From positions 20,344,069 through 20,408,068 of the forward strand of contig OW203771.1 in assembly GCA_934045905.1 (NCBI GenBank): DNA of 64,000 nt, given 5' to 3'. Every line of letters begins with the position of its first letter. The stretch's first letter is position 1. This document shows, piece after piece, positions 1,616 through 57,290 of this stretch. The notes under the pieces are model-generated. The model saw only the letters and a program-made list of their open reading frames with translations. It did not search any database and had not been told where the DNA came from. This DNA comes from Leuctra nigra. Its lineage: Eukaryota; Arthropoda; Insecta; Plecoptera; Leuctridae. The translations under genes were made by a program, and so were the position numbers.

Positions 1616-3459
1616 TTATTCCGGAGTTTTGAAGATGGAAGGCATACAGAAGTGTTGAACTTTAGAGTTCAGGAAGATGAACAACAACGACAAGATAAAG
1701 ACGTGAGAGCTCGCAGTCATGAGGTACATATACTCGTAAAAGTAGTCGCTGTGAACGGCTTTCGATTCAGCGAGGATGTCAAATAACCAAGTAAATCCGA
1801 ACAAGAAGAAGGAAATGAAACATGTTTTCAACCGATTCATTTGAACAGCGCGATCGTTTTTGACGTGTCGTGTAACATCTTTACCATCGTCACAACGAGC
1901 GATCTCAAATATGTGCAACACCACTCGAACATACACAGCAAAGTTAAACACCAGTATAGATCCTGCAGGCGCCAGTACAGTTAGTTTGAATGGAAGACCA
2001 GAAGGATAGCAAGAGCCACTGCTGTCGTCAGTAGACTTATAGAATCTCACTCCCCAGCAGAAAAGAATAGCTATTGGAATAATCGGCAAACCCCAAGCGA
2101 AGCAAAACACCTTCAATAGCAGATGTGAAATGTTCTTAGCTCCTGTGATGGTCGTCAACCGCTTTACTTGCAAAAGGGACACCGACAACATGAAGCAAAA
2201 CATCATTAGGAAGGTGTGATGCCGGATGACGCCAAGAAGAATGCAAGTCCAGCTAGAAGTGTCAACACTAGCATTGAGGTCTGTGAAAGCGAGTACAAGG
2301 TTCACGGCCAAGGCGGTGACCATGAGAAGAAGCATCTTGTGGCCAAGATCTTTCCTCCATTCGTCGAAAAATATCGCGGTTAGATAGAAACCCGACAAAC
2401 CAATTAGAGATAGGATTCCATTGGCATACATCATGCGCTTAAACATCATGTTCCTCTCCAGGTACTCCTCGAACGTGGGAGTGTGCGGGTAGACATGGAA
2501 GTACCCGCGAGTGGTGCCGTTGTCGTGTCCCAAGTGACTGCATCTGAACACGTCCAGCCCACCTCGTGTCGACCTGAGTGGGTTGCAGTTGATGATGGAG
2601 AAGGATTTGGAGACGAAGTCGTAGGAAGCGCAAGAACGATGTGTGCTTGGTACTTTGGAAGTGTTATTCACCCAAACATCGACGTAGTCTGTGGAATAAA
2701 TTGATTTTTCAAAGTCGTTATACAAGACCACTTGGATCTCATATTCTTCTGCAATTATCATGTCTTGTATGGTGTTCGATCTTCTGTCGAATTTATCATG
2801 GTAAATGACAATTCCCAGACGAGAATAATCTTTTAACAGAGAGTCTGACACTGTTATCTTAATGTCTGCTGTCGACTCAGTGTCGAAAGAGGTTGTAGAA
2901 GGGAGAACTTTCTTAGATTTCATCATGTTATTGGATGTGAGATAGTAGAATGATTCTACTCCAACAATGTTCTCCTTCGCAATCAAATTCACTATCACGA
3001 TTGTTGTAAATCCATGCGCCTCACCAATCATCAACAAATCATCACCACTCGAGATCTGCAACTTCGCAATCATTGTTTCCAGTGGTGGAAACATGTTTAA
3101 TGCCATGGTGACACCTGGTAGGACCACATTAGAATGTATATGTGCATCGAAATAGTACCAAACAAGATATGATTCAACTAACAGGCATGTAGTGTGTAAT
3201 TGTGCTGCATCAATAGTGGATTGAGCACGGAATAACAAGACCATTGGCAGATAAGCTCCGTTCCCTATGAATTGTCTGAATGATTTTACGTTGTTCTGTA
3301 TTTCAGTTCTAGAATCTTCTTGAGTACAGTTCTTCCACGAGACAGCGAAGTACTCCTGATTCAGCCACTGAGCATCTTGGATCTCCTCCGAGGCGTTCCA
3401 CTGGCATTTCCGCGTTGCTATGTTCTGCGTGCCTGTTATTAAATTTGTCTGTGCGCCAC
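1616..3459 (-). CDS. WSC-GPCR exon 16: GAIN/GPS-like segment, seven helices, short tail, stop
   Basis: The open frame begins earlier (MLFVCLFVLG), but that stretch is the intron polypyrimidine tract: the true acceptor is TGTTTTAG and the exon starts in phase 1. LLKDYSRLGIVIYHDKF fits a GAIN core. The GPS-like motif CASYDF...C...FRCSHLG has three cysteines and HLG in place of the cleavable HLT/S. Helices: TM1 after MMYANGILS, TM2 LGHKMLLLMVTALAV, TM3 from SWTCILLG, TM4 KVFCFAWGLPIIPIA, TM5 KLTVLAPAGSILVF, TM6 FFLFGFTWLFDIL, TM7 SSHVFILSLLFIF. The TM3 cysteine and GSCYPSG of loop 2 give the conserved disulphide. FGFTWLF and GLSGFYLT are typical of family B2. The cytoplasmic tail is very short. 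Confidence 0.88.
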
Positions 3460-6400
3460 CTAAAACAAACAAGCAAACAAACAACATTTTTGTTCCATAT
3501 TCTAAATCACTTTCAAAATAATATTATTATACAATAAGGAAGTCTCTTTTAAATTAGATTTCAGAATAATTGTTATTGAATTGCAGATAATTAATGTATT
3601 ATCAGTAATGTTAGTTTTGGTGCTGTGGATGAAAAGTTGTCAAATGTACAAACTACTACGAAGTCATTTAATATTTTACGTTCACTGATCAAGTCAGAAC
3701 AGTATTTTCATGAAAATGTCGAGATTTGGTTTTATATACGTACTATTTCTTTCGTCAGTCCAAAGAAAGTATGTTCCATTCGACCCTTGAGTGGTCTCCT
3801 CCATACAGTTCCCTGGAATCCACCACTTAGTCACTTGGAAGTCCGTGTATGTAGTTTCATCATCGTAATAGAACGCATCTTCTATGACACGCATGTGAAC
3901 AACCACATGTTGATCCTCCGTCATGGACGCATTCAACAAGTGCAAAACCTCGTTCTCTACGCGCAGCACTTTCACCAGATCGTGTAGAAGTCTTTTGATC
4001 AATGGGCCGTCCTCCTTCAGATCGGTTGCGTCGGCAGCTGGGTTGTTGCTCAAGAAGATGAAGTGATATCCTACAGTATCTCGATTATCAATTGTGTTAT
4101 CTATTCCTATAGCGGTTGCTACATATTGATGCTGCCTCACACACAAAACGCAGGGATACGCATGGCTTTGGGGGTAAATTTTGACCTCCCCTGATTGTAG
4201 ATTAATCCCTTGATACTGGTCGGGTGGATCGTCTTCTTCATTTACCTGAAAATAAATGGCAATATGAAATAGAAAGCAATATTTGTTTTCAATCATTATT
4301 CCTTATCATTTTTGTATTTTCTCGTTGATAAATATAATTTGCATTGTATTAAGATAAAATGCCATGGTATATATTAGGTATATTACATGTATATAGATGT
4401 AGGTATATTTTATGTATATTTCACATCTGGCCTATACGTCTAAACTAAACTAGGTATACGCACGATGCACCAAGTAAATTTTGATTTTAATATTAAGTTT
4501 TGACTTGGATAATTTTTTGATATTACTACTTTTCAGTGCTGAATATTTAGATGTCTTATATTTTTTTATAGGTGAAAAGACTTGGCTGGTACAAAATTTT
4601 TATACGGAGTTTTTTTTATGGGGATGTATGTTTATTCGAGAAAATAAGAAACACGGCCATCTGCGCTGGATTTTGTGGTACTAAGAGAAAGGTGATAGTT
4701 TAAAAGCTGCTACGCCATGGTGTTCCGGCCATTGGACGTTTTCTATATGCGCGCTATTTGTGCTCTGGATTACCGACTTTTCGACAACCAAATTCGAACA
4801 GCTGTATATTTTTTCCTACTAAAGTAATGTTTTTGATACTTTCACATATCAAACCTTGGTCTCTTAGTTCAGCCTTATTAATGAAGTAGTTTTATCACAG
4901 CGTTGTCTCGCACATTGGCCTTTTTTGGGCGCCTAGATATAAATAAACTATATTTTAATTTTATATTAAATACTTTTTTGTATTTGATATATTAAAGATA
5001 TAACATTTTATTGCTATGAAATGCTGGTAACAAATACGAAATACGAGGGTGGTTCAAGTTTCGAGCTGGTTCAATGATTCAAACAAATTCAATAGAATCC
5101 CGTCTTGCTAGATATACTAACCTCTCTCGTTAATCGAATAGATAATAAGTAATATGCGTTGCTATACGGAACGACACCACCATCACACAAGTGTTTGTCG
5201 GAGGCCGTGAGCGAACTGTACTTGAACAACATGAAACAGTTGTCGCAGTTTAATTCGCATATTTGAAACATTTCCCACCAGCTGTTGTTTCTGCTGTACC
5301 AGAATTCCTTGGGAGAGGTGACTACGGGTTCGATTTTCTGGATGCACGAGTAGTCCTCTACAGCTGAAGAGAAGGAAATTGGAATTTATTAGGCCAAGTT
5401 TCACAGATAACGGGATAATTACTCGCGGAGGTATACCATTGATAATTATTAATGATGTAGCAAATCCGGTCAATCGAATAAATTGGCCTACTATAGGAAT
5501 ACGCGCTGTGTAACGCGTTGATAAGCAATTGCCTTCGTATTGCATGCGAATTCATCTGCGTATGAAAGTTGCTGCTCTACACAACTTTGGTAATAGAGGA
5601 AGATGATTTGATCAAAATATTTATTGTACCTACATTTCTCAGATAAAAAATTGACAAATATTTCAACAAGCATAAAATGTCAGTAAAAAGTCCGGAACTC
5701 TTTAAGTCCCGACCGATTTGTCTGAAAAAGGTGAAAAACAACTAAAAAGTTAGAACCAATGACCACACGAAATTTGAAGTTGTTTGTCAAGTAGTATAAT
5801 TTTTTTGAGCGAGCGTAGCGAGCGTCTCCTTTCGGCTCATTTGGCACGGACCTCTTTTTTTTTTTTTTTCTGTTGGGTGAGGCTGTACAGGTCAGAGTTT
5901 TTCTTTGATCGATCTGAAATTTTGCACACATGTAAAACCAACCTTCTCTGTCTGCAGACCATAATTTTTTTGAAATCCATTCATTGGTTAAAATTTAAAT
6001 AAATATCTCCTGATAGGCTGAAAAATGAAAACGGTCTTCGATAATTCAGATCAAACTCATATTTTGCATGATCATTAAGACCAACATTGTCTCTTATTTT
6101 ACAAAATGTCATCCCAATCAGTTAAGAACGTATGAAATTATTAACATTTTTAATATCTGTCAGTAATGAAGTATCAAAATGAATGTTTTCCAGTGCCAAT
6201 TGGATTGAATCTGATTTGTTTTATTTTAACCAGGGTTCTTAGATGCTTAGATGCTATTTTCAAGTTTCAATGAAAAGCATAATAATATGTTGTGTTGACT
6301 GAGTGATCATATTTCAATTCAATATGGATGTATATGTTTTCTGTGCTTGTGTACGCATTTCCGGTTCGAGAATTTGCATGTCCCCATGCTCGCTCACCAA

Positions 6401-9400
6401 CGCGTTACACTGAGCGTTTTCCTAGTTATTTAATTTATTTATAATTACTTACTTGAAGGTGGTCTGTTCACGTACGGAGATGCTACGTATACATCCGCGT
6501 ATGTTTTCTGATCGGAACCACAAGTCACGTTGCTTTGCCCTGGGCAAGGGCTGTTACAATATGACTTTCGTACAATATCTACCTCTGTCAAGTCCAAGTC
6601 GTTGAGGCAGAAACATATGTTCCTGTTTAAAAAGATATCAGCTCAAGGAAAAAAATAAGTTTTATTACACACTTTGTTGAGCGAGCGTCTTGTTATGACT
6701 CTTTTGGTACGGACCTTTTTGTCTCTTAGTGGTGATATAGGTACTACCTTATGGTACTACCTAGGGGAGGGAAGGGTAAGATCGGCATGCCATACAGAAT
6801 GTAATAATGTAGTTTAATCTACCTAACGAAACAAAAATCAAGTTAATATCTGCTTTACAGACAGAGATATAACATTTTGAAACTTCAAAAACGTTGGAAA
6901 GAAGAGAACAGAAATAACCCAGCTAATTAAGTAAATAAAAATTTGTGTTTTTTAAATTCTGTTTTCAAGTGCACCTATAACGGTACCAAACATATTCCTG
7001 AAGCCATTTTTCTTCTGAAGCAATTGTTTATAAAGCGTGTAATTTACATTTGTTTTTCCGAACTTGGGGAAAAGGTCAGGGGAAAGGTGGGGGAAGTTCT
7101 TCAGATGCTATACGAACTTGCCGGTTGATGAATTGAACACATTATATGTTGCAAAATAATACAATGCTCTGTTAAAACGATTAGTTAAGTTTAAACGGCC
7201 ATTAAAGGAATGTCATTGGTTGTTGCCATGGCAATATAGTCCTAATCAACTGTTTAAAATTTAGCAGAGTATTGTAAAGCATGCTCTATAAGGTCCAGTT
7301 TTTTTTATTCCTCTGCTAAAATAAAGTAATCAAGTGAGCGTCTAGCGAGCGTCTCCACTTACTTATGGCTCAAATCTCTGACCTTTTAATTTGTGCTTTT
7401 CGCATTCCATTAAAACGAAATAACGGATCTGGTAATTTTTTAACAAAAGATGTATTCTATCCAGTACAGTGGCCTAAAGATTTCCAGCAAAATCGGTCTA
7501 TTCATTTCATCGGAAACTTAAATTGTAGTTTGTTTGTACTTAGCTTGGCAATATGAAAGAAACTCAATTCTGTGTGCCAATAAAAGTGGAATCGTTTGAC
7601 CGATCATCACCAAATTTTGCATGGTCATTGGGACCAGCAGCATTATCTAGTGGATCGGTCGCTCCACTCATGGCCAAGGCATGAGTGGAATAAACAGTGG
7701 TGGAATAAAGTCCCTGTTATTCGGCCTCTCTCTGACTCATAACATAAACATGTTTTTATCAACCAGCACAGCTACAGACCGTACCAATTTTAGTGTATAA
7801 CATGGCATTTTCGGTACACTGGATATCATAATTGGGAATCTCACATTGTTGCGAAATATCTTAATTTCGAGCTATGACCCACCTCACCACATATAACATA
7901 TTTGGGGGAACAATAATTTATGCCGTTTGGGAGCTGGAGGACCGTGAAAATCGTGAAATTGTACGGCTTTCTCCAGATGATGATAATTCATCTTCATATA
8001 AATTCCGCGGTCTCCGCCACAATCTAAACGGCTGGGCCGATTGTTCTGAAATTTTCACCACGTATCCAGTTTGTCTGCCTGAAGATACATTGCCATTATA
8101 AATTTTTCTGTCGCCATTTTGAAACCGGAAGTAACGTCATACCTCGAAAACGGCTGGACCGATCGGAACGAAATATCTATTCAGACGGTCATCTATATGG
8201 AATATCCATAGATAAAATGTTAATGTATTATTACTGAAACAAGAAATGACGTCAATGAAAAATCACCTCTTACTACAATAACTGTATTGTCAGAAGGCTT
8301 ATAATGATAACATTTATATAAATAAATTATAAGTGGCAGTGACTTCACCGCCATTAAGGCCGATGCACAATTGACGCAGACGGACGACGCGGACGGACGA
8401 CGGAGACGGATACAATGTTAAAGTCGTCGTCCGTCCGCGTCCGATTGTGAACAGCCAGAGTGAATATGTCATACCTAAACATCGTATCCGTCTCCGTCGT
8501 CCGTCCGCGTCGTCCGTCTGCGTCAATTGTGCATCGGCCCTTATAGTTAAACACAATTGATCTCGATAACGGCTAGACCGATTGGAACAAAGCTTTCGCT
8601 TTTCTTCACGTAATATCATTTTCAGCATTATTTTGTACCAAACGCAACTTTTCTTGGTATCCAAATAGGAAATTGCTTTTTTTTAAAGAATTAGTCATTG
8701 TTGCTCCGAGATAGATAGATATTATGATTTGTGGCGCTCAACAGCGAGGTTATCAGCGCCAATCAAGTCAGTACGGTCTATATAGTACAGTATAGTACTA
8801 GACCGTCAAATAAGAACTCCTAGTAAAGTGAGTCGGATGCCTTAAGACAACGGAGTGTTGTAAGAAAATATGTCGCTCAGAGAAGTCAGGAATAAAAAGC
8901 GGAGTCATATATATTAAAATCAACTAGGTGTTACGCTAGCGTGAGTCTCATCATGTAGGCGTGGCGAGTTAAGTGTAGATATTATGTTACAAGTGTGTGA
9001 ATAATCTAAAATAATGATTGATATCCCCATAAAAAGCACTCCGTGTAAAAATACCAGAGAAGTCTCTTCAACTAAAAAAAAATCTATAAATTCAGCACTG
9101 AAAAGTTGTGATATCAAAAAATTTGCCAAGTCTAAACTTAATTTTAAAAACAAAATATACCTGGCATATACTTCTAAACTATCTATATGCACGATGCGCT
9201 AAGTATATTTTGGTTTTTAAAATTAAGTTTTGACTTTGTCCATTTTTGATTTCACTCCTTTTCAGTGCTGAATTTATAGATGTTTAAATTTTTAATAGTT
9301 GAAGAGACTTGGCCGGTATTTTTACACGGAGTGTTTTTCATGGGGATAAATGTTTCTTGCCAAATCTGTAATGAACTTCAAGAGGAGTAATTGTAATTTG

Positions 9401-12400
9401 TATGCTTAATTTGAAATGTCAAAGCATTCAGATTAATTAATCTCTTTGATGAATGCAAGTTATATTATCTTCAAATGGGTTCTCAAGGTCTATAGATGAA
9501 CATATTTGACACACATGTTAATTCGTATGAAATACTAATTGGCTCCCTCTTCAAAGCCTTACATATAGAGCGTTTTTCTATAGTTAACTTAACACAGTCA
9601 TTCTAGGACTATCATATTGGCATGACAATACAGCATAACATTTCAATAATAATATGTTAGTTGTTCGTAATAATTATTATTTACAGAGAAAATAAATTCA
9701 AAAAATATAGCCCCGTGGAACATTGTTGTTTCAATTTTAAATCGACTTACCCATATAAACCGGCAAAATTGAAGAGTGAGCACGCGTCTGTGCATTTCTG
9801 TGGGGAATTGTCTTCGAAGAAGTATGGAACTCTTTGATTACCCATATCATCGGGGTGCGAGATGCATGTCAATTGTACTGCAACAAACAAGTATAGGCTA
9901 ATGAAGAAAATTTCCAATTAATGAAGCGATAGCCAGCGACTTAGACCTATGTGGGTGTTTATTTATATTAGTAAAATGTGTACCTGTTTTGTATGTTATT
10001 ATATATGTATGTTAATATAAATAAATAAAAAATTTGAATTGAAATTGAATTGAATCGGCTCCTTTTGGCACATTTAGCACGGACCTCTGTTTCTTTGTCT
10101 GTCCTTGCGTATTATTCTGTTACACTTTTTCCCCGATCGAGCTGAAAGTTTGCACACATCTATAGACCAACTCAGTGATATGCAGATCGAATTTTGTTCG
10201 TATTCCGCTTATTGGTTCAAATTTTAAATATATATATGAAATATGATTTTTTCTGATTACCTCAGATAGGGTGTTGATAATTAATACAAACTGCAATATG
10301 AAAAATGGAAATGCAATATGGAAAGATTTTCCTCGACTAAGACTCGAACCCACGACCTTTCGATATCCAGTCAGATGCTCTACTAACTGAGCTACCGAGG
10401 CAGTTCATATTGCAGCGGCTATGTTCCTGGCTATCGAGCGAGCGACCAACTGCCACGAACCTGCATAGCCGCACTAACTGCCACGAACACTATCTCTCTA
10501 ACACCCGCCCCAAAACTTACCGATTTTAAAGATAGGGTCAGAAGACCGTGAATTTCATCCACGTTTGACATCTGAATTTAATATATATATGAAATGTAAC
10601 TGCAAATTTAACAGATTTGACCTCCGGTGGGATTTGAGCCCACGACCTTTAGATTGCCGACCTTTAGATTCATTGGTCAAAATCAAAATGTTCCATCAAG
10701 TTTAATATTGTATGATCGAAATTAACATTATCTCCTTTTTCCACATTTTCAGCCCAATTGATCAAATATTTACAAACTTTAAGAGTATTGAAATAGCTGA
10801 CAAAGATATTTATCGAAGAGTATCAAATACCTACACGGTTCATGGAAATGTGTTTGCTATTTTGTTTTTTTGCCTGCTCTGCCCATGTTAAACCGCTCAA
10901 GCAATCGATCTGAAATTTTGCACACATACTATTGTATACTAACGTAACTAGCTTAATGATGCATATGAGGAGGCTGGATTAAGAATCAGCGTTACAAAGA
11001 CGAAATATTTGGTGGTTGGCAAGGAGTTTGGAGAGGCTTGGATTTGAATGGACAGTGTATCGAGGTGTGTGAGCAATATAAGTACTTGGGAACTGTAATT
11101 GATAAAGAAGGAAACAGTAGGAGAGAGATATCCTGTCGTATTGGTCAGGCGAGACAGGCAATACAGAAGCTCAATGCGTTACTCTGGTCCGGGAGTGTAG
11201 GTAAAACCACAAAAAAAAGAATCTACAAGACGATAGTTCAAAGCATTCTTCTGTATGGTGCAGAAACGTGGGAGATGACGCAGAGGGATAGAGAAAGGCT
11301 GCTTGCAGTGGAAATGGATTTCTTAAGAAGGAGTTGTGGAGTCTGAAGATTAGAGCACGTGAGGAATGAGGAGATAAGAAAACGGATGGGAGTGGAAAAG
11401 ACGGTGGTTAATTGTATAGAAACAAATAGACTTGTTTGGTATGGGCATGTTCAGCGCATGGAACCTCAGAGGTGGCCAAAAAGATTAGAGTCTTGGATAC
11501 CTCCTGGTAGAAGAAGACGAGGGCGACCAGAAGAGGATTGGAAGAAACAGGTGCTGCTGGACATGTCAAGAAGAGGAATTGGTGATGATGACTGGACGGA
11601 CAGAGAGAGGTGGCGTCTGGAGTGCGGGAAACGGCCGGCTTAGAGCTGTAGACCACCCGCTAATATATATATACTAACGTAATCTATGCGGTCTCTGGGA
11701 TCGTTTTTGAACGGTATCCTGTGATTGGTTCAAATTTTAGAAAAATTAACTTTCGATTGGTTGGTTTAATCAATTTGAAATTTAGCATAGTCATTTCAAC
11801 CAACATTAAAAAGCCCAATCATAAAAAGTTTCAGCCAAATCCTCCTATTGGTTCAAATTTTAAATAATTTTTCCGGTGATTTTTTAAATTTAAACTAGAA
11901 CCGATAGACCACTTTAAAAATTATTAATGTGGCTCTGCTTTTTGAATAAAAAATCATAGGCAGTTTGATTTCCAGGTCCCCTTGTAATGTGTTTTAACAA
12001 TGAGTAACACATTACAAGGTGACCTGGTAATCAAACTGCATATGATTTTTGTTAAAAAGCAGAGCCACATTGATAATTTTTAAAGTGGTCTATTGACCGA
12101 TCAACTTAAAACTTCGCATGGTGATTAGAACCAACATTTAAGGTATTTTTTTTTGCAAATTTTCAGTCTAATCTGTCATTATTTTCAAAAGTTTTTGTCA
12201 TTTTAGTGACATTTTATTCCATAATCTAGAAATATTTGAAAAACTTATACTACATTTTTATCCCTGCCTTCTTTAAGCTTCTGCTCCACCAAGGCCTGTA
12301 GAGCAGCCAAGCAGTCCACAATTTACTATAAAACTAGCGCTTATAAGATCGGTTGCAGTTCAAAGGACACAATACTCCAATTGGTTAAAGTTTAAATAAT

Positions 12401-15400
12401 ATCTTCATCTTCTGATTGGTCGACAATCAAAATCTTCCGATTAAGTTCAAATTTTGCATGGTGATCAAAGGCAAACTAAATTGCACACATTGTAAGCCCA
12501 ATCAGGCAAGTATTAATTGCCATTTTACGAGTTTAGTATGGGTTGTCAAAAGCTGGAAAAAGTATGTAGGAAAGTCACGACACAATGGATCTGATATTCA
12601 TCCAGAGTATTTATATTGAGATTGGAAAGCACTTTCCAACTAAGTTCTTTCCAATCTCAATATAAATACTCTGGATGAATATCAGATCCATTGTGTCGTG
12701 ACTTTCCTACAAATCGTCTTGTGCCGTATCGTGTATCGTGACTGGGGATGTTGCTTGTTCTGTGCTCGCTCATCAACAAGTTACACTGAGCGTTTTCGTA
12801 GTATCGGATTGAAACGTTATATGTCATTGGCTGTTTTAGCGCTGGCATTTGTTTTTTGTTATGATTATTACCTTTTTTGTCTCTGCTTCCATACACGTGG
12901 CACCATATCTCTGATTGAGTTGAAATATTTAAGTACTAATTTTAGGCCGGATGGATAAGTCTCGAAAAAATTTCAAATTATATGCAATAAATACGACTAT
13001 CAATTGTGTTAAAATTTCAATACATTGGAATCAGTGGAACGCAAGTTATGGTATCTTGAAGTTGAAACAGAATATCCGGGAGATAATTTTACAAGTTTTA
13101 TTCACATGTTAATTTCATGAAGTGAAATTATCTCCCGCTTTTTCTGGTTTTAAGCTCAACTTCACGATACCCTAACTTTTGTTCATTTATTCAAATATCG
13201 AAATTTTAACACAATCGGTAGTAGCATATTTTGAATAAAATTATAAATTTTAATCTTGTTTTCATCAATAGTTTTGAAACAAAAGGTGTTCCGGCCATTG
13301 AAGGTTTTCTGGTTTTCTATTTGAGCTTCGTATAACTTTTCGACAAACAAATCGAACAGCTGTAACTTATTTCCTTCTTTCCACTTTCCTACTTCTTTCC
13401 TTTCCATCAAATCATGATCAAATCATGTATTTTATAATATGTGAAATTTTCAGTCCAATCAATTCAGGAGTTTGATCTGCACAGCGGTGTCTAGCCCATT
13501 GGAAGTTTTTTTTGGGCCATCCGGTATTTAAGGTACTACAACTAGGAAAACGCTCTGTGTAACGCGTTGATGAGCGAGCACGGATAGTCGCAACACCTCG
13601 AACCGAAGGAAAATGTCATTAAAAGCCAATAATTTTTGAATTTTGTCATAGGCATGTATAAAGTCTAAAAAAAATCCCAAATTATTGGTCCCAATAACCT
13701 TGCAAAGTTTAAAGTTGATCGATAGAACCATTCTGATTGAACTGTTCCTTGTTAATTTTCAAAAAATCACAGGATCTCCTTCAAAAAATATACCTGGGAC
13801 GATATGATATTAGTGTGTGTACTTACACAATATTAGATCGATCTGTTGAACGGTCATTAGATATTAGTTTCATATGCATTTGAAAGTTTCTTCTTTAACT
13901 ACCTTGGAGCTTGGAAATGAAGAGTCGAAGTTGCCGTGATCAATAATTTTCGAGAAATTTACATCCTTCTTGAAAAATAAACGTAAAAAGTCAATAACTT
14001 TTGGATTTAAGCATGGATTAGTCTAAACATTTTCAAAAATACAGATAATGTTGGTCCCAATGACCATGCAAAGTTTTAGATCAGTCAAACGGTTCTAGTT
14101 TAAATTTCAAAAATCACTGGAAAGATGGTTAAAAATTTTAACAAATGGAAGGATTTGACTGAAACTTTGTAAGATTGGGGACAATGTTGGTCGTAATGAC
14201 TTGTCAAAATTTCAAATTTATCGGAAAAACCAATCGAAAGATAATTTATTAAAAATTTGAACCAATCACAGGATCCCGTTCAAAAACGATTCCAGGTACC
14301 GCATAGATTACGTTAGTATGTGTGCAAAATTTCAGATCTATTGGTTGTGCGGTTTGACCTGGGCAATGACCACAAAAAAAACAGATAAGGTGCTATAACA
14401 GTACCGTGGTGACGCCCGCTACGCTCGCTCAATTAAAAGAGGATTTTACCTGGTACATTGTTGGAATGATACACATCCATAGCAGAAACCCCTCCGCAGG
14501 TATATCTGGCGTCTTGCATACACTTCAGATCACAGCTAGAGCGAGGCAACGTTGTGTTGGGAAGAGTGTCCCCACAGTAGCATTTCGTGCTGAGAGAGTT
14601 CAAACAATAAATGATCACAGCAAAAACAAATATACCAAAACTAGGAAAACGCTCTGTGTAACGCGTTGATCAGCGAGCATGGATACGCGCAACACCTCGA
14701 ACCGAAAGTCTATCGAAAATTTCCTTAAAATCCAATAATTCTTGAATTACGTCACAGATTTTGATACAAATCTCCAAAAATTGCTTAAATATTGGTCCCA
14801 ATAACCATGTTTAAGTTGATCGATTAAAAGGCTACTTGTTAAATTTCAAAAATCACAGAATCTCGTTCTAAAAATATACCTGAGACCACCACTCATATGA
14901 TATTTATAGTGTGTGTATCAATATTATATCGATCTGTTGAACGGCCATATCAGTTTCATACGTTTGAAAGTTTCTACTCTAACTACCTTGGAACTATGAA
15001 GAGTCGATGTTGCCGTGATCTGCATTTTCGAGAAATTTGACAGCTAACACCCAAAATGTCCGTAAAATGTCAATAACTTTTGGATTATAACATAGATTAG
15101 TCTGAAAATTGTCAAAAATACAGACAATGTTGGCCCCAATGACCATGCAAAGTTTTAAAAGTTGATTGGTCAAACGGTTCTAGTTCAAATGTCAAAAATC
15201 ACTGAAAATATGGTTTTAAATGTTAACCAATGGGAGGATTTGGCTGAAACTTTGGTCGTGGTCAACCAATCGAAAGATATTTTTTTTTAATTTGAACCAA
15301 TCACAGGACCTCGTTCAAAAACGATTCCAGGGACCGCATAGATTATGTTAGTATGTACGCAAAATTTCAAATCGATTGGTTGAGCGGTTTTACCTGTGCA

Positions 15401-21400: not shown

Positions 21401-22138
21401 GTAAGTATCTACTTCTCTACTTCTCTATCTATAGTCTACTTATCTACAAACATATTTTTATTTTATTATCTATAGCTTATCTAGCTTTTATTTTCTACCT
21501 TATTAGTCTAAGGTACTACCTTGTCGAAATATTTTGAAAGCTCAGTGAAATTAGTGTTGATGCACAGAAATATCACCCATCACTGACGAAGTCTCACATT
21601 ATTATGCAAAAACTAAACTACCTATAGCCTCAGGTTTGTCAATTTGAGTACAGATTAGAGGTTGACAGTTGTAGTAACTTCTGACTTGAGGTAGTATATT
21701 ATAAAACCTACTGTCTAGTAGGTATATAGTATATTATCAAATTCTACTGTCTAGTAGGTAGAGTATAGGTACTACCAATTTTAAAGAATCATAAGATTAG
21801 TGTGTAGGTAGTAATATGCAAAAGAGACCTGAACTAGGGCTCGAACCAGGACCTCTTGCTTGCTTTTTGGGTGTTTACTAATGTTCCTAGTTCATTAAAT
21901 CATCGGGCATAATGAGAGATCCCGGTTTGATCCATGGAGGCTGGAACATGGGTTCCGCCTCCCTCCCCCCCCCTCCAACCATAACCACTCAGGATGCTAG
22001 GTAGAGTACAAATATTTCTTGTAGTGTTAACTTATAGTTGTATTTTTTTAAATGAAAGTGTACCTATACTACCTAAAAAATCTTATGTTTTTCCAGCTGT
22101 CAAAAAGCAAAAACTGTATTGCGAGGCACGCTGTAATT

Positions 22139-22176
<38 letters not shown>

Positions 22177-31100: not shown

Positions 31101-34100
31101 CAGAAATTAGACACGAGGACATGAGGAGTGTTATTATTTGATAGACTGTGTATGGCATGATTTCAATAAGAGACAAAAAAATATGAAGATCTGATACCAT
31201 GCCCCGATTGGTTGAGACGATTGGTATCCTGGCCTCTTAATTACCTGTTGTCTAAACCCGCGTACTTGTAATCCGCGCAATGGTTCCTGCACATCTGTGG
31301 CGAGTTGGAGTTGAGAGTAGATGCTGTTTTACCGACCCAGGCCTCCTTCACGCTACACCCCACGCCGGCAGATGGCGACACTGTGTCGACTGCAATTGTT
31401 TCAACACTTTCATGTACAGTTCGTTTTTCCTATGTTTGAACTCTCTACAGACCGAGACACCGTCAGTTGTTCTGTTAGGCCGAGAAAGATAACATTGCAA
31501 GGTGAGCGTGCAATGAACTCTTTCTCGGCCTAGCAGAACAACTGACTGTGGCTCCATCTGTTGAGAGTTCAAACAGTAAAAAAACAGACTGTAGGATACG
31601 AAATAATTTGATGTCCGTTGAACATTTTCACACTGTTAGATAGATATACTGCTTTGAGTTTGACTTTCTTGTTTTATGTAGCACAAAAAGGCGGCCCATA
31701 CTTTTTTCTAAACGGCTTTACCGATTGTCTTCAAATTTTCACATGTTATAGATAAAGAGTAGATCTGTGTCTCTAGTTGCCCTAATGTTTTATTTTTTGT
31801 TTAGCTATTTTAGGGCAGACATGCCAAAAAGACTCATATATTGCCCATGTTAGCACTTCCTCAAAACGAGAAAAAACATTTTTTATTATTTTTTCGATCA
31901 CTAGAGACACAGATTTACTCTTTATATCTATGCTTTTAAATTTTGAAAACAATCGGTCAAGGCGTCAATATTTGAATTAAAATAACTTACTTCACAGCAG
32001 TATATGCAACATGCAACACACGATTAAATGTCACAAATGTCACGTACAACCCAGAGCTGAAGCATTTTTATGCATTTCTAGTTGTTGTTTTTTTACATCG
32101 AAATCGAAATTTCTGCGAGTCCTGTCGACTCTTAAATTATTTGCTTTTCTATAGGGTTGCGTTTTTTATAGCTGTTTGCAAATTGATGGAGACATAGTAA
32201 AAATAATAAATATTTAAGCTTAAAAGTCGATAATAATCGCAGAAATTTGCGATTCGGACGAACAAAATTTCCTAAAATGCATGAACATACATTAGATATG
32301 CGCTTGTACGTGACATTTATGACATTTAATCGTGTGTTGGATGTTCCATATACTGCTGAAAAGTGATTTGTTTTAATTCAAATATTGAACATAAAAAAAC
32401 ATAAAAAGCATACCCTTAATTTTAAAAAAAAGACTTGTCCGAATGTCTTTAAAATTTTACTACTGTTACAGATAAACTGTTATAAATCTGTATTTCCATG
32501 ATTTAAAAAATCAAAGAAAAATCTTTTTTTGAGTTGCAGAGGGTCAAACTAGAGTAATTTTAAGGGTCATTTTGCACCCCTACCGCGAAAAAACGAAACA
32601 AAAAATGAAACATTTTCGGCCGGGGACACAGATTTACTATTTTTTTATAATCTATGAAATTTTGAAGACAATCAGTCATGACATTCAGAAAAAAGTATTG
32701 GTAGAGCGTATACGCTCTTCAAAAAACATTATTTCGTCAAGTATTTATAGACTCTTAAAAAAGAAATAAAATACTTTAGAAAGGGAGTACTATAGAACCA
32801 ATATTGAGCTTGTTGTTTGACACGGCAAGTATTTGTTGGAGCCACTTCGCGCACAGAAAATCAACCTTTGACAGTTGGTGGACTAGATCAATCAAAGGTG
32901 CACGTTTACAACTACCTAATACCATTGAGCAGATCGTTATATTTAAACATACTTGTGAATGTTTTGTATGGACGGGTGAGATATATGTCCATCGCTCTAT
33001 CGCCTCCACAAGTGAGCTCTGGATCGTTTTTGCAAGGCATCCAACAATAGCCTTCATTTTCAGGTAACAAATAGGTAAATGAAGGCAACTGATTACCACA
33101 GGAGCAGTCTTTCCTGTAAAGTAGGAAACAAAGATTAACGTCAACACTTGGAAAATGTTCAGTGCAACGCGTTGAGCGAGCACTACGATTCAGATACAGC
33201 ATCTTAACAGACATTTTCGTAACAGAGAAATACCGGGTGGTTCATAAATAAATCTTGTCAAATTTTGTCAAGATTGTTTTGTTTTGTATTTCAATTTTGT
33301 CAAATATCTTATTTTATGAATAGCTGCCATCTTTAAATAATGCCCGCTACGGGTGACCAGTAACTAAATCGAACATTTTGATGATATATTCGAGTTCCCC
33401 GTGACCGATTTAATAGGAAAGATGGTGTCGCATGACAATTTTAGATTTATATGTTTCTTTATATGGTGCCATTTTTTAAAATGGCTGCCACGGGTTACCA
33501 GTAAGCAAATTGAGTATTTTGATTTCATATTCGAATTCTCCATGGTCGAATTAGTGGGAAAGATGGTGTCGCATGTCATGTTGCCCATTTCATTTGACCG
33601 TCATATCAAATATGGTCGTCACTGTTAAAAATGGCTGCCATGGGTAAGCGTTGAGCAAATGGAGAATTCTGATGTTATATTCGAGTTCCCCATGGTCGAT
33701 TTAGTAGGAAACATCGTGTCGCATTTATATTTCCGTGGAATTTAGCACAATACATCAAAATAAGCGCAATTTTATAAAATGGCCGCCACGGCGTCATGGG
33801 CAAAATCTGAGGTGGCTCCCGGTATTTTAATGAATGGTTGGGTATCTGGTATGTGTGGTAAAAATTTTGTGCTTTTATACCGAAGTGCACAATCATTTCA
33901 CATCCCGCCCGGACTAGACCTTCAGATCTACTGTTTTTGATTAAATTGTTTTGGTTTGTTGGGAAATGAACTTTCGACGTGTCAACGTGTCATTTAGTTC
34001 AATTTTGAATACCTATGTTTTTAACGACTTAAAAATATCTGTAAAGATTTTTAATGTTAATATATTTTTTTTAATAGAAACTGAATGTGAATCTAATCAA

Positions 34101-37100
34101 TGATCTAATAAATGGCTTGACTTTTTGTTTCAAGGTCGATCATTCTTACATTGAATGGAATTTAGAAGATTGGTGTAAAATTGTTTGGTAGCTCCTCATC
34201 ATCTCTGTATTAGTTTGTGCACCGTACGACTTGGCTTTCGTGGGGCGACCAACCGACTAGTTAATGACCGAGTTCATGTAATTGATTAAACTCACCCATT
34301 AAATGCACCAGCGAATGTGTAATTAGTACAGATCTCAACGCAACTCTTCACAGTAGGTTTGTAGCCGAGGGTTTGTTTCTTGCTATCTGACACATCTTTC
34401 CAGAGAGATGAAGCAGTTCCAGATGTATGGTGTTGGTAACAACCAACTCTTACTGAGGAACAAGCCATGCCAATAGTTAATAATGTGATTTTTCGGCCGT
34501 TTTAGAAAATTGAGAGAGAAAAATTGTTTCATAAGTGGGTGTAACTTTGATAGGATGTTCACATGATCAGTCTGATTCTAAATTAGTAGCACTTTTTAAT
34601 TTTTGCTTCGTGCCTTGTTAATTAGGCGCCTGTGATTAAAAAAAAACGCGCAAAACGATGAAGTTTCTGATACGATTGGAGACCAAACCCGTTAACCAAT
34701 TGATCTCAAATTTTAGTCATGATTTGATGGAAGACGAACTAAGGGTCATCACTTGGCACATTTTTGAAATTTAATTTTATACGGCACCCAGAGAGACAAG
34801 GAAATAGCTAATTATTCACCAAAAGATTAAATTTCATTAAAAATTTATTAAAATTAAAATTTCAAATTGATTAAAATTTCAAATCATGTCTCCCATTTTC
34901 GGTCGGTGATGCAGTCTGAGAAAGGGACCTTATAGTCATTGGGTAATTCGGAGTTATCGCTAATCTATCAGTAATAATCCGAAAACAGACGATGTTATGT
35001 TAATTATGTGTACACTTTGTTTCTGTGACTGTATTACTTGGAAGAATAGTCATTTTTCGGTTTAGGCCAACGTTTCGACAATCATGAAATAGTCATCTTC
35101 AGTATTTTCAGTAGTTGTAATTTTCAATTTAATTTTAAACAACTTCATAATTAATTTCATGTATTTTATATTGATAGTTATTCTGTGTTTGTACAACCTT
35201 TGTTAATAAGGCAGACTTTATTTCTCTGAATAAAGATATATATATTAGATATTATTACAGATATTATGGTTTATGGCGCTCAACGGCAAGGTTATCAGCG
35301 CCAGTCAAGTCATTCAACTAGAAGTTGTAATTAAATGAATATACATCCCTAAGCCATCTTCATCTTCAGGTACCACAAACGTTTGAAATTAAACACTTCC
35401 GGCAGTAAGACTGAATTATTTTCTGATGTACAAGAAAACTTATCGAAACCGTTTCAATCTAATTAAAAAGCGTAAACATGCACCTTAAAATGAGTATTAA
35501 CATATTAGATACTTGTAGCATTTGTATAACCACAAGCAGAAATTAGAACAAGTTGTAATCAATGTGCTAGTGCACATGTCTTAAAAGCACTTTTTATCTA
35601 ACCTACGTCATATTTTAATTTAAGGTGGCGCAATCACTCGAAGTCATAGTCTCAGATCTTCATAATTTTGTGTGAACTTGTTGATAACCATGCCATACAC
35701 AATCCCTGAAAAAATTAAACTCTTCTCGTGTCTAGTTTCTGAGATAATTTGAGTTTTATCCCCCATGTTATCTTATGGCAGCCAAGTAAAATCGTGTCTT
35801 TTTTAAGCTAAAATGGAGTTCTAATCTTTTTGTACCGTTAGATTTTAACAAAAAACTTTTTTTCTGCTAGACATATGGACATACTATCAGGAAAAAATTG
35901 AAAACAATACCATCGTGTGCTATTTTAAAAGTTATTAACCAAATTCGAAATGATTTTCCTATACCTCCCATGAAGTGATGTAAGGGGCAATTTACCAATA
36001 AAATGTGACGTAGGAATAGTATGGAAAATTATCACAAAACTTAAAAATAAAAAAGCCCCAGGTCTTGATGGATATACAGGTGAATGCCTTAAGCTTGGAG
36101 GAGTCTCAATATCGAAGTATTTAAATCATTTGTTTAATGTAATTTTAGCTAATAAAAAAATTCCCGTGGATTGGAAGCAGGCCGTAGTTATTCCGTTGTT
36201 TAAAGGAGGTGAAAGGAGTAAAGCCTGTAATTATCGGCCAATTAGTTTAACATCTACAGTATGTAAGGTCTTTGAAAGAATAATTTCGAATTACTTGAGG
36301 AGTGTCCTGGAAATGGATAAATGGTTTATTGAAGAGCAGCATGGCTTCAGATCAGGTATGTCCTGCGAGACTCAATTGACAATTCTTTCTCACGAGTTGT
36401 CAAGTATATTAGATAATAAAGGAGAAGTTGATGCTGTGTTCTTAGATGTTCAGAAAGCATTTGACAAAGTTCCCCATCATGCTCTGATCAATAAATTAAA
36501 TGAGATAATAAGTGATAAATTAGTTGTTGAAATAATCCAAGACTTTTTGAGAAATAGAACTCAAAAGGTAAAAGTGGAAGATACATTTTCGTCACTTATT
36601 AGGGTTGAATCAGGGGTTCCGCAAGGTAGTGTTTTAGGCCCTTTACTATTTATAATTTATATTAATGACATTTCGGAAAACATACAATCTAGTATAAAAT
36701 TATTTGCAGATGACTGCGTTGTATATCGATGTATTGAGAATAAAGGAGATGAGAAAGCACTTCAAGATGATTTAAATAAATTAATGGAATGGATGCATAA
36801 AAATGAAATGACATTGAATTCAAGTAAATGTGAGATGGTACAGTTTTCAAGAAGGAAGATTAGAAGGCAAGTAGAATATAAGTTAAATTGTGAAAAAATT
36901 AAAGTTGTTCATGGGTATAAATATTTAGGGATTTGGTTTGATGAAAAATTAAATTGGCAGGAACAAGTTAAAAGGGTTACTGGGAAATCGATTAAAAATA
37001 CTAACTTTGTCATGAGAAATCTAAAGCATGCTGACAAATATGTCAAAAATCAAGCATATAAAACACTCATAAGACCCATACTAGATTACGGGAGTGCAAT

Positions 37101-40100
37101 TTGGGACCCATATAAAATAAATGAAATAACTCTTTTGGAGAAAGCACAGAGAATGGCTGTAAGGAGAGTGACGAATGAAACCAGGAAGTGGAAGATAAAG
37201 AGAAATGAAAAGGGAGTGGTTGTGAGAGAGTGGGTGAGTCCGACAGAGTTGATGAAGGAATTAAAGTGGGAGAAGTTGGAGGAAAGGAGAAAGGTAACGC
37301 GGTTATGTAATTTTTTTAGAATATATAAGCAAATTGGCGGGTGGAAACATTTTGGACAGTTTTTGAAATTGAAAAAAAAGAAACGAACAGATAAGCATGA
37401 ACATCAAATTATAGAATGGCCCATAAAAACGGATATTGGAAAAAATGCATTTTTATTAAGAACAATTAGAGAATGGAATAATTTGGAAGGTGTGTTTGAC
37501 TCCGTAGATATTGAGGAATGTAGTGTAAGAGAATTTAGGAATAAGTTAATTAGTTATATATTAGTAGAGTAATGAGTTATTTGATGTATAGTAGTAATGT
37601 TTAAATGTTAAATTTGTTGTAGTCTTAGTTTTGTTTATAATATTAATTAATATTCCTTGCCACCGGGGAAACCCATTTGTAAGATGAAAAATAAAATGAA
37701 ATGAAATGAAGTGTCTTTTGAGACACTTCTGTCTTTTGAGAATGATTAAAATAATTTCGAATTTAGTTAATAACTTTTAAAATAGCACACGATGGTATTG
37801 TTTTCAATTTTTTTCCTGATAGTATGTCCATATGTCTACCAGAAAAAAAGTTTTTTGTTAAAATCTAACGGTACAAAAATATTATTACTCAATTTTAGCT
37901 TAAAAATGACATGATTTTACTTGGCTGCCATAAGATAACATGGGGGATAAAACTCAAATTATCTCAGAAACTAGACACGAGACGTGTTTAATTTTTTCTG
38001 GGATTGTGTATGGCGTGATTATCAATAAGTACACATAATATTATGAAGATCTGAGACTATGAATTCGAGTGATCGCGCCACCTTAAACAATTGTATAGGA
38101 TCTTTGACAATTTTGGACAGAAACATTTTTTTTTTTTTTTTTTTTTTTTTTAATGAGTATGACTAATTAAATATTCTTAAAGGAATTAACTCATCAACAA
38201 AAATTGAATTTTTGCCATAATCTTCTCTACCTTGATTTGTGATTGAAATTGCGTAAACGTCAAGGGCCAAGTCTCCTCCGCTGGTGCAGTTTGAGGCAAC
38301 CGAGCAGTTCTGGGCACATCGCTCTCGGGGCAGAGTTGTACTGGGCAGAGCGTCTCCGCAGTAGCATTGTATGCTGGGAGAGAGCAAACACAAACACACA
38401 TGATCCAATCACGACATTCTCACAATCTCAGATGGGATGATGTTATTGAGCGAGCGACTCTTTTGGCACGGACCTCTTTTTTCTGTTACTTAGGCGCTAC
38501 AGGTCACAGTTTTTCTTCGATCGAGCTGAAATTTTGCACACATGTACGGACCATTTCTGGGCGTTGCATACTATATTTTTTTGAAACCGCTGATTGGCTC
38601 AAATGTAAAAAAAATCGATTGGTTAGGCCGATCAATTTGAAATTTTGACAAGTCTTTACGACCAACATGTCCTCAATCTTACAAAGTTTCAGCAAAATCC
38701 ACCCATTAAAGCTAAAGTTTAAAACCATATTTTCTGTGATTTTTTACATTTTAAACTAGAACCGTGTGACCGATCAACTTAAAACTTTGCATGGACCAAC
38801 ACTTTAGGTATTTTTGCCAGTTTTCAGACTAATCCGTCGTTATTTTCAAATTAATTATCCATACATATTGTAATATTAGCCAAATCGGAATAGCCGATGA
38901 CATGACTGAGTCTCACAATACCTTTCTACATCGTGATCCGAGTGCCAGCGAATGCCCGTGAATCTGTATCCCGTACACGCTCTCTTGCACAGCGCCGCCG
39001 AGTCAGTGTCCATGAACAATGTAAGAGTCCAATCCCGTGCGAGACTCCCTCCAACTCCAAAACATCCGCTACTCCCATCTAGTAACACGTTGGGATCAAT
39101 TTCAAAAACTAGTTGGTTCTTTGACTTCGTTAGTTGCGTAGTGTGGACACTGGACACCATACAATAGTACAGTCGCCTCCCAGACTTAGTTCTGGCGCAT
39201 CAGGGCACATCCCCTTGCTTGCGCCTGCAGGTTCGACAACTTTACATACATCGCAGTATGTACGTTGCCTATTAGCTATATACTTTGGGAACCACAACCG
39301 ATCGATAATGATGTAAACAAATCAATCCGAATAGCACGAGTCAATGGCTCGACGTAAATAATACTTTCCAAACAGTAATGTGATGTGGTCTGAGGAAAGG
39401 AACCTGATGGGGAAATAGGTAGTTTCTAGTTATCGCTAATCAAAGTTATAATGCGTAATACACTATTTTAATTTTATAAATAATGCCTTGAACGGCCGAC
39501 AAAATTATTTTATTAGACATCTCGAGTTTTCCTCTGCTATTTAGTGATCTTCAGGAGTAAATTACCCCCCCCCCCCCCCCACCTGATACCCCCCACACCG
39601 TAACCCCCTGATCGGATGGATTAATAGGGACACATCGAAATCTCACAAATTCAAACAAGACAAAATTTTACATTGGGCCTAAAAAATTCCAAAGATTATT
39701 TCACAAAAACATGGTCGTCGGCAGGATTTCAGCCAGAGGGGGGGGGGGGGGGGGGGGGCAGAGCAAGGAAAATGATTTTCCATGGATTAAGGGGGGTGTG
39801 ATGGTGCGGCCCCTCACACTGCTGGCGTTTTTTTTTTAGGTTTTTTGACATTTTGAAATCAATTTTGAAACGTTTTGAGGTGTATTTTGTTGAAACACAT
39901 AAAGTTGACACTTTGGTGTTGTGGGGGGTCCCACCTTGCCCCGCATGGATTTTTTGTTTTTGTGACGCTTTGAAATCAAGATTTTAAGTTTTTTGTTTAC
40001 AAAATTCAACTCGACGTTAAACAGCACAAAATGTTATGTTTCCGGACATTCCGGCACCCATACCTACACGAAGATATTGAGACGAAAATGTAATCATACA

Positions 40101-57031: not shown

Positions 57032-57290
57032 GCTAGAAACAGAAGAACATTAGGAACTGTTGTGATGGCAATAGGTACTCTTGGGTCTTACAATCTCATG
57101 AGGTAAAAATTATGCACAAAATCCACTGGCCAAAAATGATAAAGCTTCACCCAAACTACGATATTATTTAAAATAGTCAGAAAAACTCCTCAAATGTATA
57201 GCACACATGTGTATAATACAAATACAATTATTTAGATATTTTTTCGGGTGATCCTTCAACTAGTTGTAGAATAATATTGTAATTTACATT

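What the first reader, a model, noticed from the sequence alone, without database searches (positions are those of the whole stretch)
1616..46834. Adhesion-type GPCR carrying six WSC domains
Sixteen exons on one strand close in phase into about 1503 residues: signal peptide, 6 x WSC, HormR-like region, GAIN/GPS-like segment, B2 seven-helix core. WSC domains are known with GAIN/GPS in polycystin-1, but I know of no established adhesion-GPCR subfamily with an N-terminal WSC array. If confirmed, it suggests a glycan- or matrix-sensing receptor type. Seen: domains, phases, splice sites. Inferred: that all exons belong to one transcript.
Basis: partly seen in the sequence, partly recalled or inferred. 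Interest (0 to 1): 0.92.

Follow-up and report, generated by a model that had tools for sequence, protein, structure and literature searches.

The report
Six-WSC adhesion-type receptor, hugely duplicated
A single animal gene appears to join six WSC domains, a module known for sugar binding in fungi, to a seven-helix adhesion-type receptor that lacks the usual self-cutting site, and about seventy related places in the same genome point to a large unrecognised family of surface sensors.

Summary
Sixteen minus-strand exons (46834-1616) join in phase into 1489-1491 residues: signal peptide, six WSC domains (Pfam 1.7e-53), about 590 residues of further ectodomain, seven helices.

One gene is favoured: a P450 gene closes the 5' side, no signal-peptide exon was found near the receptor half, and a copy on another contig has counterparts of all 16 exons in order.

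The window's own genome changed the picture. The last exon has 70 matched places, 54 of full length. Of 136 WSC matches, 58 lie within 60 kb upstream, same strand, of 26 of them; random placements averaged 1.2.

The 7TM is class B2: 7tm_2 in 16 of 18 members at E up to 1, best 1.7e-15; 13 of 14 PDB profile hits are adhesion GPCRs. None of the 20 members examined has Ser/Thr at the cleavage position. HormR and GAIN were not demonstrated.

Best reading: an expanded, non-cleaving adhesion-type receptor family, some members carrying WSC arrays that may bind polymeric glycans. Architecture is near certain; the ligand is a guess; no structure could be predicted.

The parts
46762..46834 (-). Exon 1: start codon and signal peptide (MMCNIWSRTWMLIIVLTATDVSCA), phase-1 donor CAG|GTGAGT
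   Evidence: one of only three sites passing my simple signal-peptide-exon filter in 5.4-47.5 kb, donor 9 of 9; counterpart in the C9 copy, 58% identity over 24 residues, E 3.3e-4
38922..39078 (-). Exon 2: WSC1 N-half
38231..38373 (-). Exon 3: WSC1 C-half
   Evidence: DNA homology with exons 7 and 11 reaching 17 bp into the intron
34296..34452 (-). Exon 4: WSC2 N-half (acceptor 34452 preferred, 34446 possible)
32953..33113 (-). Exon 5: WSC2 C-half
   Evidence: DNA homology with exon 9
31245..31389 (-). Exon 6: WSC3 N-half (weak acceptor)
   Evidence: DNA homology with exon 10
30501..30625 (-). Exon 7: WSC3 C-half
27345..27474 (-). Exon 8: WSC4 N-half
18513..18661 (-). Exon 9: WSC4 C-half
16748..16964 (-). 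Exon 10: WSC5 N-half
14450..14589 (-). Exon 11: WSC5 C-half
9751..9877 (-). Exon 12: WSC6 N-half
6453..6622 (-). Exon 13: WSC6 C-half; in-frame stop just past its donor, then AATAAA at 6439
5122..5357 (-). Exon 14: cysteine-rich domain of unknown fold shared with other family members (C...C..NC..C...LCxGG.VPYN); not shown to be WSC
   Evidence: tblastn 37-52% identity upstream of 7 of 19 other members searched, most with only 1.5 kb of flank; hhalign to WSC probability 0.2%
3744..4245 (-). Exon 15: membrane-proximal ectodomain shared with other family members, no Pfam match
   Evidence: no Pfam family; tblastn matches upstream of 12 of 19 other members searched
1616..3459 (-). Exon 16: rest of ectodomain, GPS-like segment, seven helices, tail of about 17 residues, stop
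2470..2641 (-). GPS-like segment with CSHLG instead of H-x-S/T (approximate limits, within exon 16)
1665..2440 (-). Class B2 seven-helix region (approximate limits, within exon 16)

Best explanation
One 16-exon gene encodes a class B2 (adhesion-type) seven-helix receptor: signal peptide, six WSC domains, a membrane-proximal ectodomain shared with its relatives that ends in a degenerate GPS, and a seven-helix core with a very short tail (shown at gene and sequence level, no transcript). It belongs to a family with 70 matched places in this genome, in which an exon 14-15-16 core recurs and WSC exons lie upstream of some members and were not found by others (shown, lower bounds). The WSC modules are frame-neutral (phase 1 to phase 1) cassettes between the signal-peptide exon and exon 14, and DNA homology suggests growth by copying a two-WSC, four-exon unit. 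Mechanism (inferred): the glycosylated WSC array reaches out from the cell and binds a repetitive polymer, most likely a polysaccharide such as beta-1,3-glucan or chitin; many weak WSC sites give avidity. Because the cleavage residue and a recognisable tethered agonist are gone, the chain stays uncut, and binding or pull would be passed through the intact membrane-proximal region to the helices. The size of the family suggests a recognition repertoire with shared signalling. My estimates: one WSC-7TM gene 0.93; uncleaved 0.85; polymeric glycan ligand 0.4. The field below scores the whole statement.
For: Gene model and phases; WSC (profile matches to yeast Wsc1 4e-8 and KREMEN1 about 1e-7); P450 gene ending at about 47997 bounds the 5' side; no site passing the signal-peptide-exon filter in 5358-9750; C9 copy with counterparts of all 16 exons in order, and phase-fitting GT-AG borders that a script could choose for 15 of 16; dN below dS for WSC exons (0.38/1.48), exons 14-15 (0.30/0.44) and exon 16 (0.13/0.38); 70 matched places, 64 without stops; WSC co-location 58 of 136 matches upstream of 26 of 70 exons v. 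random means 1.2 and 0.5; 7tm_2 in 16 of 18 members at E up to 1; PDB profile 13 of 14 aGPCRs, best 2.3e-19; 0 of the 20 best-matching places with S/T at +1; duplication unit. A fungal three-WSC lectin binds long-chain beta-1,3-glucan (PMC7816849 passage); a fungal WSC domain binds xylan and chitin/beta-1,3-glucan (PMC8400822 passage).
Against: No transcript. The window protein itself has no Pfam 7tm_2, GPS or HRM match up to E 10, and Pfam's Frizzled model also matches 4 of 18 members (best 5e-4). GAIN not detected; the window GPS alone against the amphioxus GPS is not significant (739 of 5000 shuffles). [quoted passage not shown] Only 26 of 70 places have a Pfam-detectable WSC within 60 kb upstream (27 with L015), so WSC is not a family hallmark. 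In the C9 copy the colinear place was not the best-scoring one for exons 4, 6 and 7 (WSC repeats cross-match), exon 10 has no fitting donor and there is an extra C-half fragment. Synonymous distance differs about fourfold between WSC and core exons of that pair, which a simple whole-gene duplication does not explain. The WSC exons are more diverged than exon 16 at silent sites too, so faster evolution of the array is not shown.
Confidence: 0.6

Rival explanations
1. Two neighbouring genes: a secreted six-WSC protein and a separate adhesion-type receptor, joined by chance of phase.
For: In-frame stop right after the exon-13 donor, followed by AATAAA (6439) and ATTAAA (6434); no transcript; 78 of 136 genomic WSC matches are not within 60 kb upstream of a matched 7TM exon, so WSC genes without this 7TM may exist.
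Against: No site passing the signal-peptide-exon filter for the receptor half in 5358-9750; counterparts of all 16 exons in order on contig C9; WSC matches upstream of 26 of 70 7TM exons against 4 downstream and 1 on the opposite strand; the paralog L017, with no WSC found, reads by eye as signal peptide-E14-E15-E16 (phases not checked), which would place the WSC cassettes inside the gene.
Confidence: 0.05
2. The receptor is as described but the WSC array binds a protein (Wnt- or Kremen-like partner, or another receptor) rather than a glycan, acting as a co-receptor or adhesion scaffold.
For: Polycystin-1 CTL and WSC reported to bind Wnts (PMC9672506 passage); the array profile matches KREMEN1 about as well as fungal Wsc1; short tail.
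Against: The multi-WSC protein in the passages read binds long-chain glucan; no kringle, CUB, LRR or C-type lectin domain was reported by Pfam.
Confidence: 0.3
3. The same gene makes two products: the full receptor and, by early polyadenylation in intron 13, a secreted six-WSC decoy or lectin.
For: Stop just past the exon-13 donor and two polyA-signal-like hexamers within about 20 nt of it.
Against: Such hexamers are common in this A+T-rich DNA (26 on this strand below 10 kb); not checked in the C9 copy.
Confidence: 0.15
4. The expansion is a chemosensory or gamete/self-recognition repertoire, and the ligand class differs from member to member, WSC being only one of several front ends.
For: 70 matched places, 22 of them on contig C11, with recent copies (two pairs 99-100% identical); WSC not found near a 13-member clade.
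Against: No expression data; the lack of WSC in that clade rests on a Pfam search that finds only 4 of the window's 12 half-exons. Faster evolution of the WSC part, which I first counted in favour, is not shown; odds lowered from 0.3 for that reason.
Confidence: 0.25

Closest known systems
Adhesion GPCRs (class B2); solved relatives found: ADGRG2, G4, G6, D1, F1
   Same: Seven-helix core (13 PDB sequences at 2.3e-19 to 6.6e-6), long N-terminal region, GPS-like cysteine pattern in register before TM1, TM3 and ECL2 cysteines, TM4 Trp and Pro, TM6 Gly and Trp in 20 of 20 members (their general conservation in B2 is recalled)
   Different: No Ser/Thr at the cleavage position in 20 of 20 members examined, no GAIN, GPS or HRM match by Pfam, WSC array, 70 matched places in one genome
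Drosophila Mayo and Ketchup (ADGRX)
   Same: Insect adhesion GPCRs not placed in a vertebrate subfamily (PMC13197933 section 67)
   Different: Only GAIN and 7TM predicted, canonical GPS and self-cleaved according to that section; two genes. No sequence comparison was made here
Drosophila Remoulade (ADGRA)
   Same: Irregular GPS thought non-cleavable
   Different: Ectodomain likened to vertebrate A2; WSC not mentioned there
Polycystin-1
   Same: WSC plus GAIN/GPS in one membrane protein (passages)
   Different: 11 helices (abstract start), PLAT, PKD repeats and LRR; this protein has seven helices and no such Pfam match
Kremen and yeast Wsc1
   Same: WSC domain matched by the array profile
   Different: Single-pass proteins (recalled), one matched stretch per chain, no 7TM
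Fungal multi-WSC proteins
   Same: The 17 protein hits to the array all list PF01822; the 13 that name an organism are fungi (names recognised from memory); WSC3 lectin with three WSC domains
   Different: None of the 17 lists a 7TM or GPS domain; four list the oxidase-type pair PF07250/PF09118 (meaning recalled)

Membership tests
Adhesion GPCR (class B2) | Class B2 seven-helix domain | tested here: met
   7tm_2 in 16 of 18 members at E up to 1, best 1.7e-15, though not in the window member itself; Frizzled model in 4 of 18, best 5e-4; PDB hits 13 of 14 aGPCRs with the profile at E up to 1e-5, 10 of 11 with exon 16 at E up to 1, 8 of 8 with its last 360 residues at E up to 10; seven hydrophobic peaks; 0 of 1000 shuffles against the amphioxus 7TM
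Adhesion GPCR (class B2) | GAIN domain | tested here: inconclusive
   No GAIN match by Pfam or PDB; pairwise GAIN-B 345 of 1000 shuffles; the ADGRG6 match reaches back to profile position 230, about 110 positions before TM1. PMC11697300 (abstract start in listing) says GAIN sequence conservation is low.
Adhesion GPCR (class B2) | GPS motif with H-x-S/T cleavage triad | tested here: not met
   CSHLG in the window; 0 of the 20 best-matching places of 70 have S/T at +1. Non-cleaved members are known, so this does not exclude membership
Adhesion GPCR (class B2) | GPS-like cysteine frame just before TM1 | tested here: inconclusive
   Cys2 and Cys4 in 20 of 20, Cys1 in 6 of 20; in register with ADGRG6 and amphioxus GPS in profile alignments; GPS segment alone 15.2 v. 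best of 25 control windows 13.7; no Pfam GPS match listed for 18 members; single-sequence test 739 of 5000 shuffles
Adhesion GPCR (class B2) | HRM/HormR domain (many, not all members) | tested here: not met
   No HRM match by Pfam, no PDB match. Only the spacing fits: about 300 residues from Cys920 to TM1 v. 280-330 in PMC12716839 (passage)
Adhesion GPCR (class B2) | Hydrophobic tethered agonist right after the cleavage site | tested here: not met
   GHDNGTTRGYF follows HL in place of the TNFAVLM of the amphioxus receptor P0003; judged by eye
WSC domain proteins | PF01822 over the cut-off | tested here: met
   1.7e-53, six stretches; 5 of 6 domains over the cut-off singly; Wsc1 and KREMEN1 structures matched by profile
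Polycystin-1 family | Eleven helices, PLAT, PKD/REJ | tested here: not met
   Seven helices, no such Pfam domain in the pieces scanned
Secretin GPCR (class B1) | Closest solved relatives B1, HRM | tested here: not met
   No B1 receptor among the PDB hits; no HRM

The most novel reading that the evidence does not exclude
A lineage-restricted receptor superfamily (70 matched places, 54 of full length) in one arthropod-like genome, derived from class B2, that has given up self-cleavage and uses shuffled cassettes (WSC arrays among them) as front ends: an animal GPCR repertoire for polymeric glycans of microbes, food or cuticle, analogous in logic to the large odorant and immune receptor families.
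Probability: 0.25. Interest if true: 0.92.

Novelty: new variant of a known kind. Interest (0 to 1): 0.82.

Why it matters
Drosophila has five adhesion GPCRs (PMC13197933 section 67). A genome with 70 places matching one adhesion-type exon, all 20 examined lacking the cleavage residue and at least 27 with WSC matches upstream, would be a natural experiment in how these receptors signal without cutting or a classical tethered agonist, and would offer a candidate GPCR route for sensing polysaccharides. The cassette layout makes the link between ectodomain and signalling core testable by swapping modules.

Tried and rejected
Exon 14 as a seventh, shortened WSC: 83 of 1985 reported shuffles (2000 made) scored as high, and a profile of eight family members gave hhalign probability 0.2%; not supported. 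HormR: no match. GPS by single-sequence comparison: not significant, only profile alignments give register. Protein homology searches of the receptor half: one hit at E up to 1e-3 among 5733 candidates, an amphioxus protein with 7tm_2 and GPS (7e-5); none at E up to 1 among 1718 candidates with the GPS-7TM piece; these searches need shared 5-residue words and candidate lengths of 0.55 to 1.75 times the query, so short or fragmentary relatives would be missed. WSC half: 17 hits at E up to 1e-5, none listing a 7TM or GPS domain, with only the 7992 candidates sharing most words scored. A prokaryotic promoter scan was irrelevant; NCBIfam gave nothing useful. 'Not in print' rests on the listings in one open-access library; a sponge paper lists WSC and GPS among domains in one figure legend without saying that they share a protein (PMC8242945, passages and section 13). 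On re-reading I dropped my claim that the WSC exons evolve faster than the core, since silent sites differ in the same direction; the novel case went from 0.3 to 0.25 and the repertoire rival from 0.3 to 0.25 for that.

Full report
Gene model. The minus strand of 46834-1616 holds 16 exons whose GT-AG borders and phases fit without an internal stop, giving 1489 residues, or 1491 with the better exon-4 acceptor. The coding sequence is 4476 nt in a 45,219-nt span; introns are 284-8683 nt. All six WSC domains are split by an intron in phase 2 at a corresponding place, and each WSC exon pair starts and ends in phase 1. Exon GC exceeds that of the flanks in 16 of 16. Weak points are the acceptors of exons 4 (34446) and 6.

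WSC array. Pfam gives PF01822 1.7e-53 with six stretches; singly 5 of 6 pass the curated cut-off and WSC1 does not. A profile of the six matches yeast Wsc1 (4e-8) and KREMEN1 (about 1e-7) chains. Odd and even domains are related at DNA level: C-half exons 3, 7 and 11 at 77-84% including 17 bp of intron, exons 6 and 10 at 74%, exons 5 and 9 at 68%. This suggests growth by copying a unit of two WSC domains; a 24-bp match between the flanks of exons 8 and 13 and a 17-bp match of exons 7 and 9 do not fit that pattern and may be chance.

Why one gene. A P450 gene on the same strand ends about 1.16 kb upstream of the start codon: six pieces cover Pfam positions 2-453, two of them over the cut-off singly, the last only weakly (E 0.0029). 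Among start codons with a hydrophobic leader and a fair phase-1 donor, none lies in 5358-9750; in 9751-47500 there are four, two being exon 1 itself. So by this simple filter the receptor half has no start of its own nearby.

The genome. The genome search answered for exon 16: the window is G000:C10:20344069-20408068 in a 536-Mb assembly, and P0001 matches 70 places including itself, 64 without stops, the best 54 spanning about 600 residues at 42-100% identity (a lower bound, 69 of 182 candidates scored; two places on C12 may be pieces of one gene). The nearest copy (78%, contig C9) has counterparts of all 16 exons in order over about 46 kb: for 13 exons the best match is the colinear one, for exons 4, 6 and 7 it is another WSC repeat and I searched windows chosen by order. 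A script could choose phase-fitting GT-AG borders for 15 of 16, exon 10 lacking a donor, and there is an extra WSC C-half fragment. Between the two copies dN/dS is 0.38/1.48 for WSC exons (493 codons, near saturation), 0.30/0.44 for exons 14-15 (217) and 0.13/0.38 for exon 16 (611), so both halves look constrained. The roughly fourfold gap in dS between WSC and core exons is unexplained; gene conversion of the 3' end or exchange of WSC modules are options.

WSC across the family. The Pfam WSC model finds 136 places in the genome (150 of 218 candidates scored). 58 lie within 60 kb upstream on the same strand of 26 of the 70 exon-16 places; 9 lie downstream on the same strand (4 exons) and 1 upstream on the other strand; 200 random placements gave on average 1.2 WSC (maximum 10) and 0.5 exons (maximum 3) (random places do not keep the clustering of the real ones). 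78 WSC matches are unassigned. The search undercounts: it finds only 4 of the window's 12 half-exons and 1 of 13 half-exon hits in the C9 copy, and paralog L015 has one WSC found only with my own model. L003, L017 and L018 showed none at E up to 0.01 in 30-40 kb; L017 reads by eye as signal peptide, exon 14, 15, 16. In a tree of 20 members the two six-WSC copies are sister (88/92) to a 13-member clade (98/100) near which none was detected. Of 19 other members searched, most with only 1.5 kb of flank, exon 15 has a match by 12 and exon 14 by 7.

The 7TM. The window protein alone has no Pfam 7tm_2 hit up to E 10, but 16 of 18 aligned members do at E up to 1, best 1.7e-15; the Frizzled model matches 4 of 18, best 5e-4. 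The alignment profile finds 14 PDB sequences at E up to 1e-5, 13 of them adhesion GPCRs, and the last 360 residues of the window protein find 8 of 8 adhesion GPCRs up to E 10. TM3 and ECL2 cysteines, TM4 Trp and Pro and TM6 Gly and Trp are in 20 of 20.

Cleavage site. Among the 20 best-matching places the GPS-like segment keeps Cys2 and Cys4 in 20, Cys1 in 6 and the His in 14; the +1 residue is Gly, Asp or Asn in all 20. The canonical motif is H-x-S/T (PMC13062082, abstract). Loss of cleavage did not abolish LAT-1 function (PMC3776922 passages); for Cirl, cleavage is dispensable for its peripheral mechanosensory role but needed in neurogenesis (PMC13197933 section 67). The GPS match is weak by single sequence (739 of 5000 shuffles) and rests on register in profile alignments. 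GAIN and HormR were not detected.

Mechanism. Shown: architecture, family, loss of the cleavage residue. Inferred: WSC arrays bind polymers. A three-WSC fungal lectin binds long-chain beta-1,3-glucan but not short oligomers (PMC7816849 passage) and a fungal WSC domain binds xylan and chitin/beta-1,3-glucan (PMC8400822 passage); [quoted passage not shown] Twenty of 22 N-glycosylation sequons lie before TM1, and the tail is about 17 residues, so signalling should run through the helices rather than a tail scaffold.

Known or new. Surveys of amphioxus and choanoflagellate adhesion GPCRs list many ectodomains; WSC is not among those in the passages read (PMC2246102; PMC12716839), and the listings count no 'WSC' in them or in the 2026 aGPCR review (passages of the review, 300,000 of 412,533 characters held). 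'Lineage-restricted' rests on the word-limited searches. I file it as a new variant of a known kind; membership in adhesion GPCRs proper hangs on the GAIN fold, which I could not test.

Noticed in passing
window 48000-57049, minus strand: Cytochrome P450 gene in at least six pieces (Pfam positions 2-453; two of six over the cut-off singly). Its I-helix reads AGFEPIS where a conserved Thr is usual (recalled), while the haem loop FGVGPRVCIG is present; it may not be an ordinary monooxygenase.
   Followed up: partly
window 35974-37572, plus strand: Open LINE-type reverse transcriptase frame (RVT_1 8.7e-37) inside intron 3 of the receptor, opposite strand.
   Followed up: no
L026:1-7700: Upstream of the L003 receptor a minisatellite of about 119 bp, dozens of copies, seems made of the 5' part of exon 14 and its surroundings, next to the real exon 14.
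   Followed up: no
G000:C3:1548176-1548468 and 1616153-1617175: Nine WSC C-half matches in two runs (2 and 7) with successive ones 146 bp apart: a second case where an exon-like piece of this family seems to have become a tandem array.
   Followed up: no
window exons 2-13 v. exon 16, compared with the C9 copy: Synonymous distance 1.48 in WSC exons but 0.38 in exon 16; gene conversion or module exchange possible.
   Followed up: no
window 6434-6452: Stop codon and polyA-signal-like hexamers directly after the exon-13 donor, a possible secreted six-WSC form.
   Followed up: partly
G000 clusters on C4 (26.6, 27.2, 30.2, 35.7 Mb), C6 30.8 Mb, C1 23.8 Mb, C11 16.9 Mb: Clusters of WSC matches with no matched 7TM exon within 60 kb downstream on the same strand: more distant receptors or another WSC gene family.
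   Followed up: no
L007/L008 and L009/L010: Recent copies: exon 16 identical in an inverted pair 130 kb apart, 99% in a pair 100 kb apart; could also be assembly duplicates.
   Followed up: no
window 19187-19946, 26380-26798, 61295-61864; 22143-22175, 45347-45377, 59619-59647: Minisatellites (93, 96, 118 bp) and long C or G runs.
   Followed up: no
window 60333-60407: tRNA-Ala-like sequence, perhaps a SINE head; a weaker tRNA match lies at 10329-10401.
   Followed up: no
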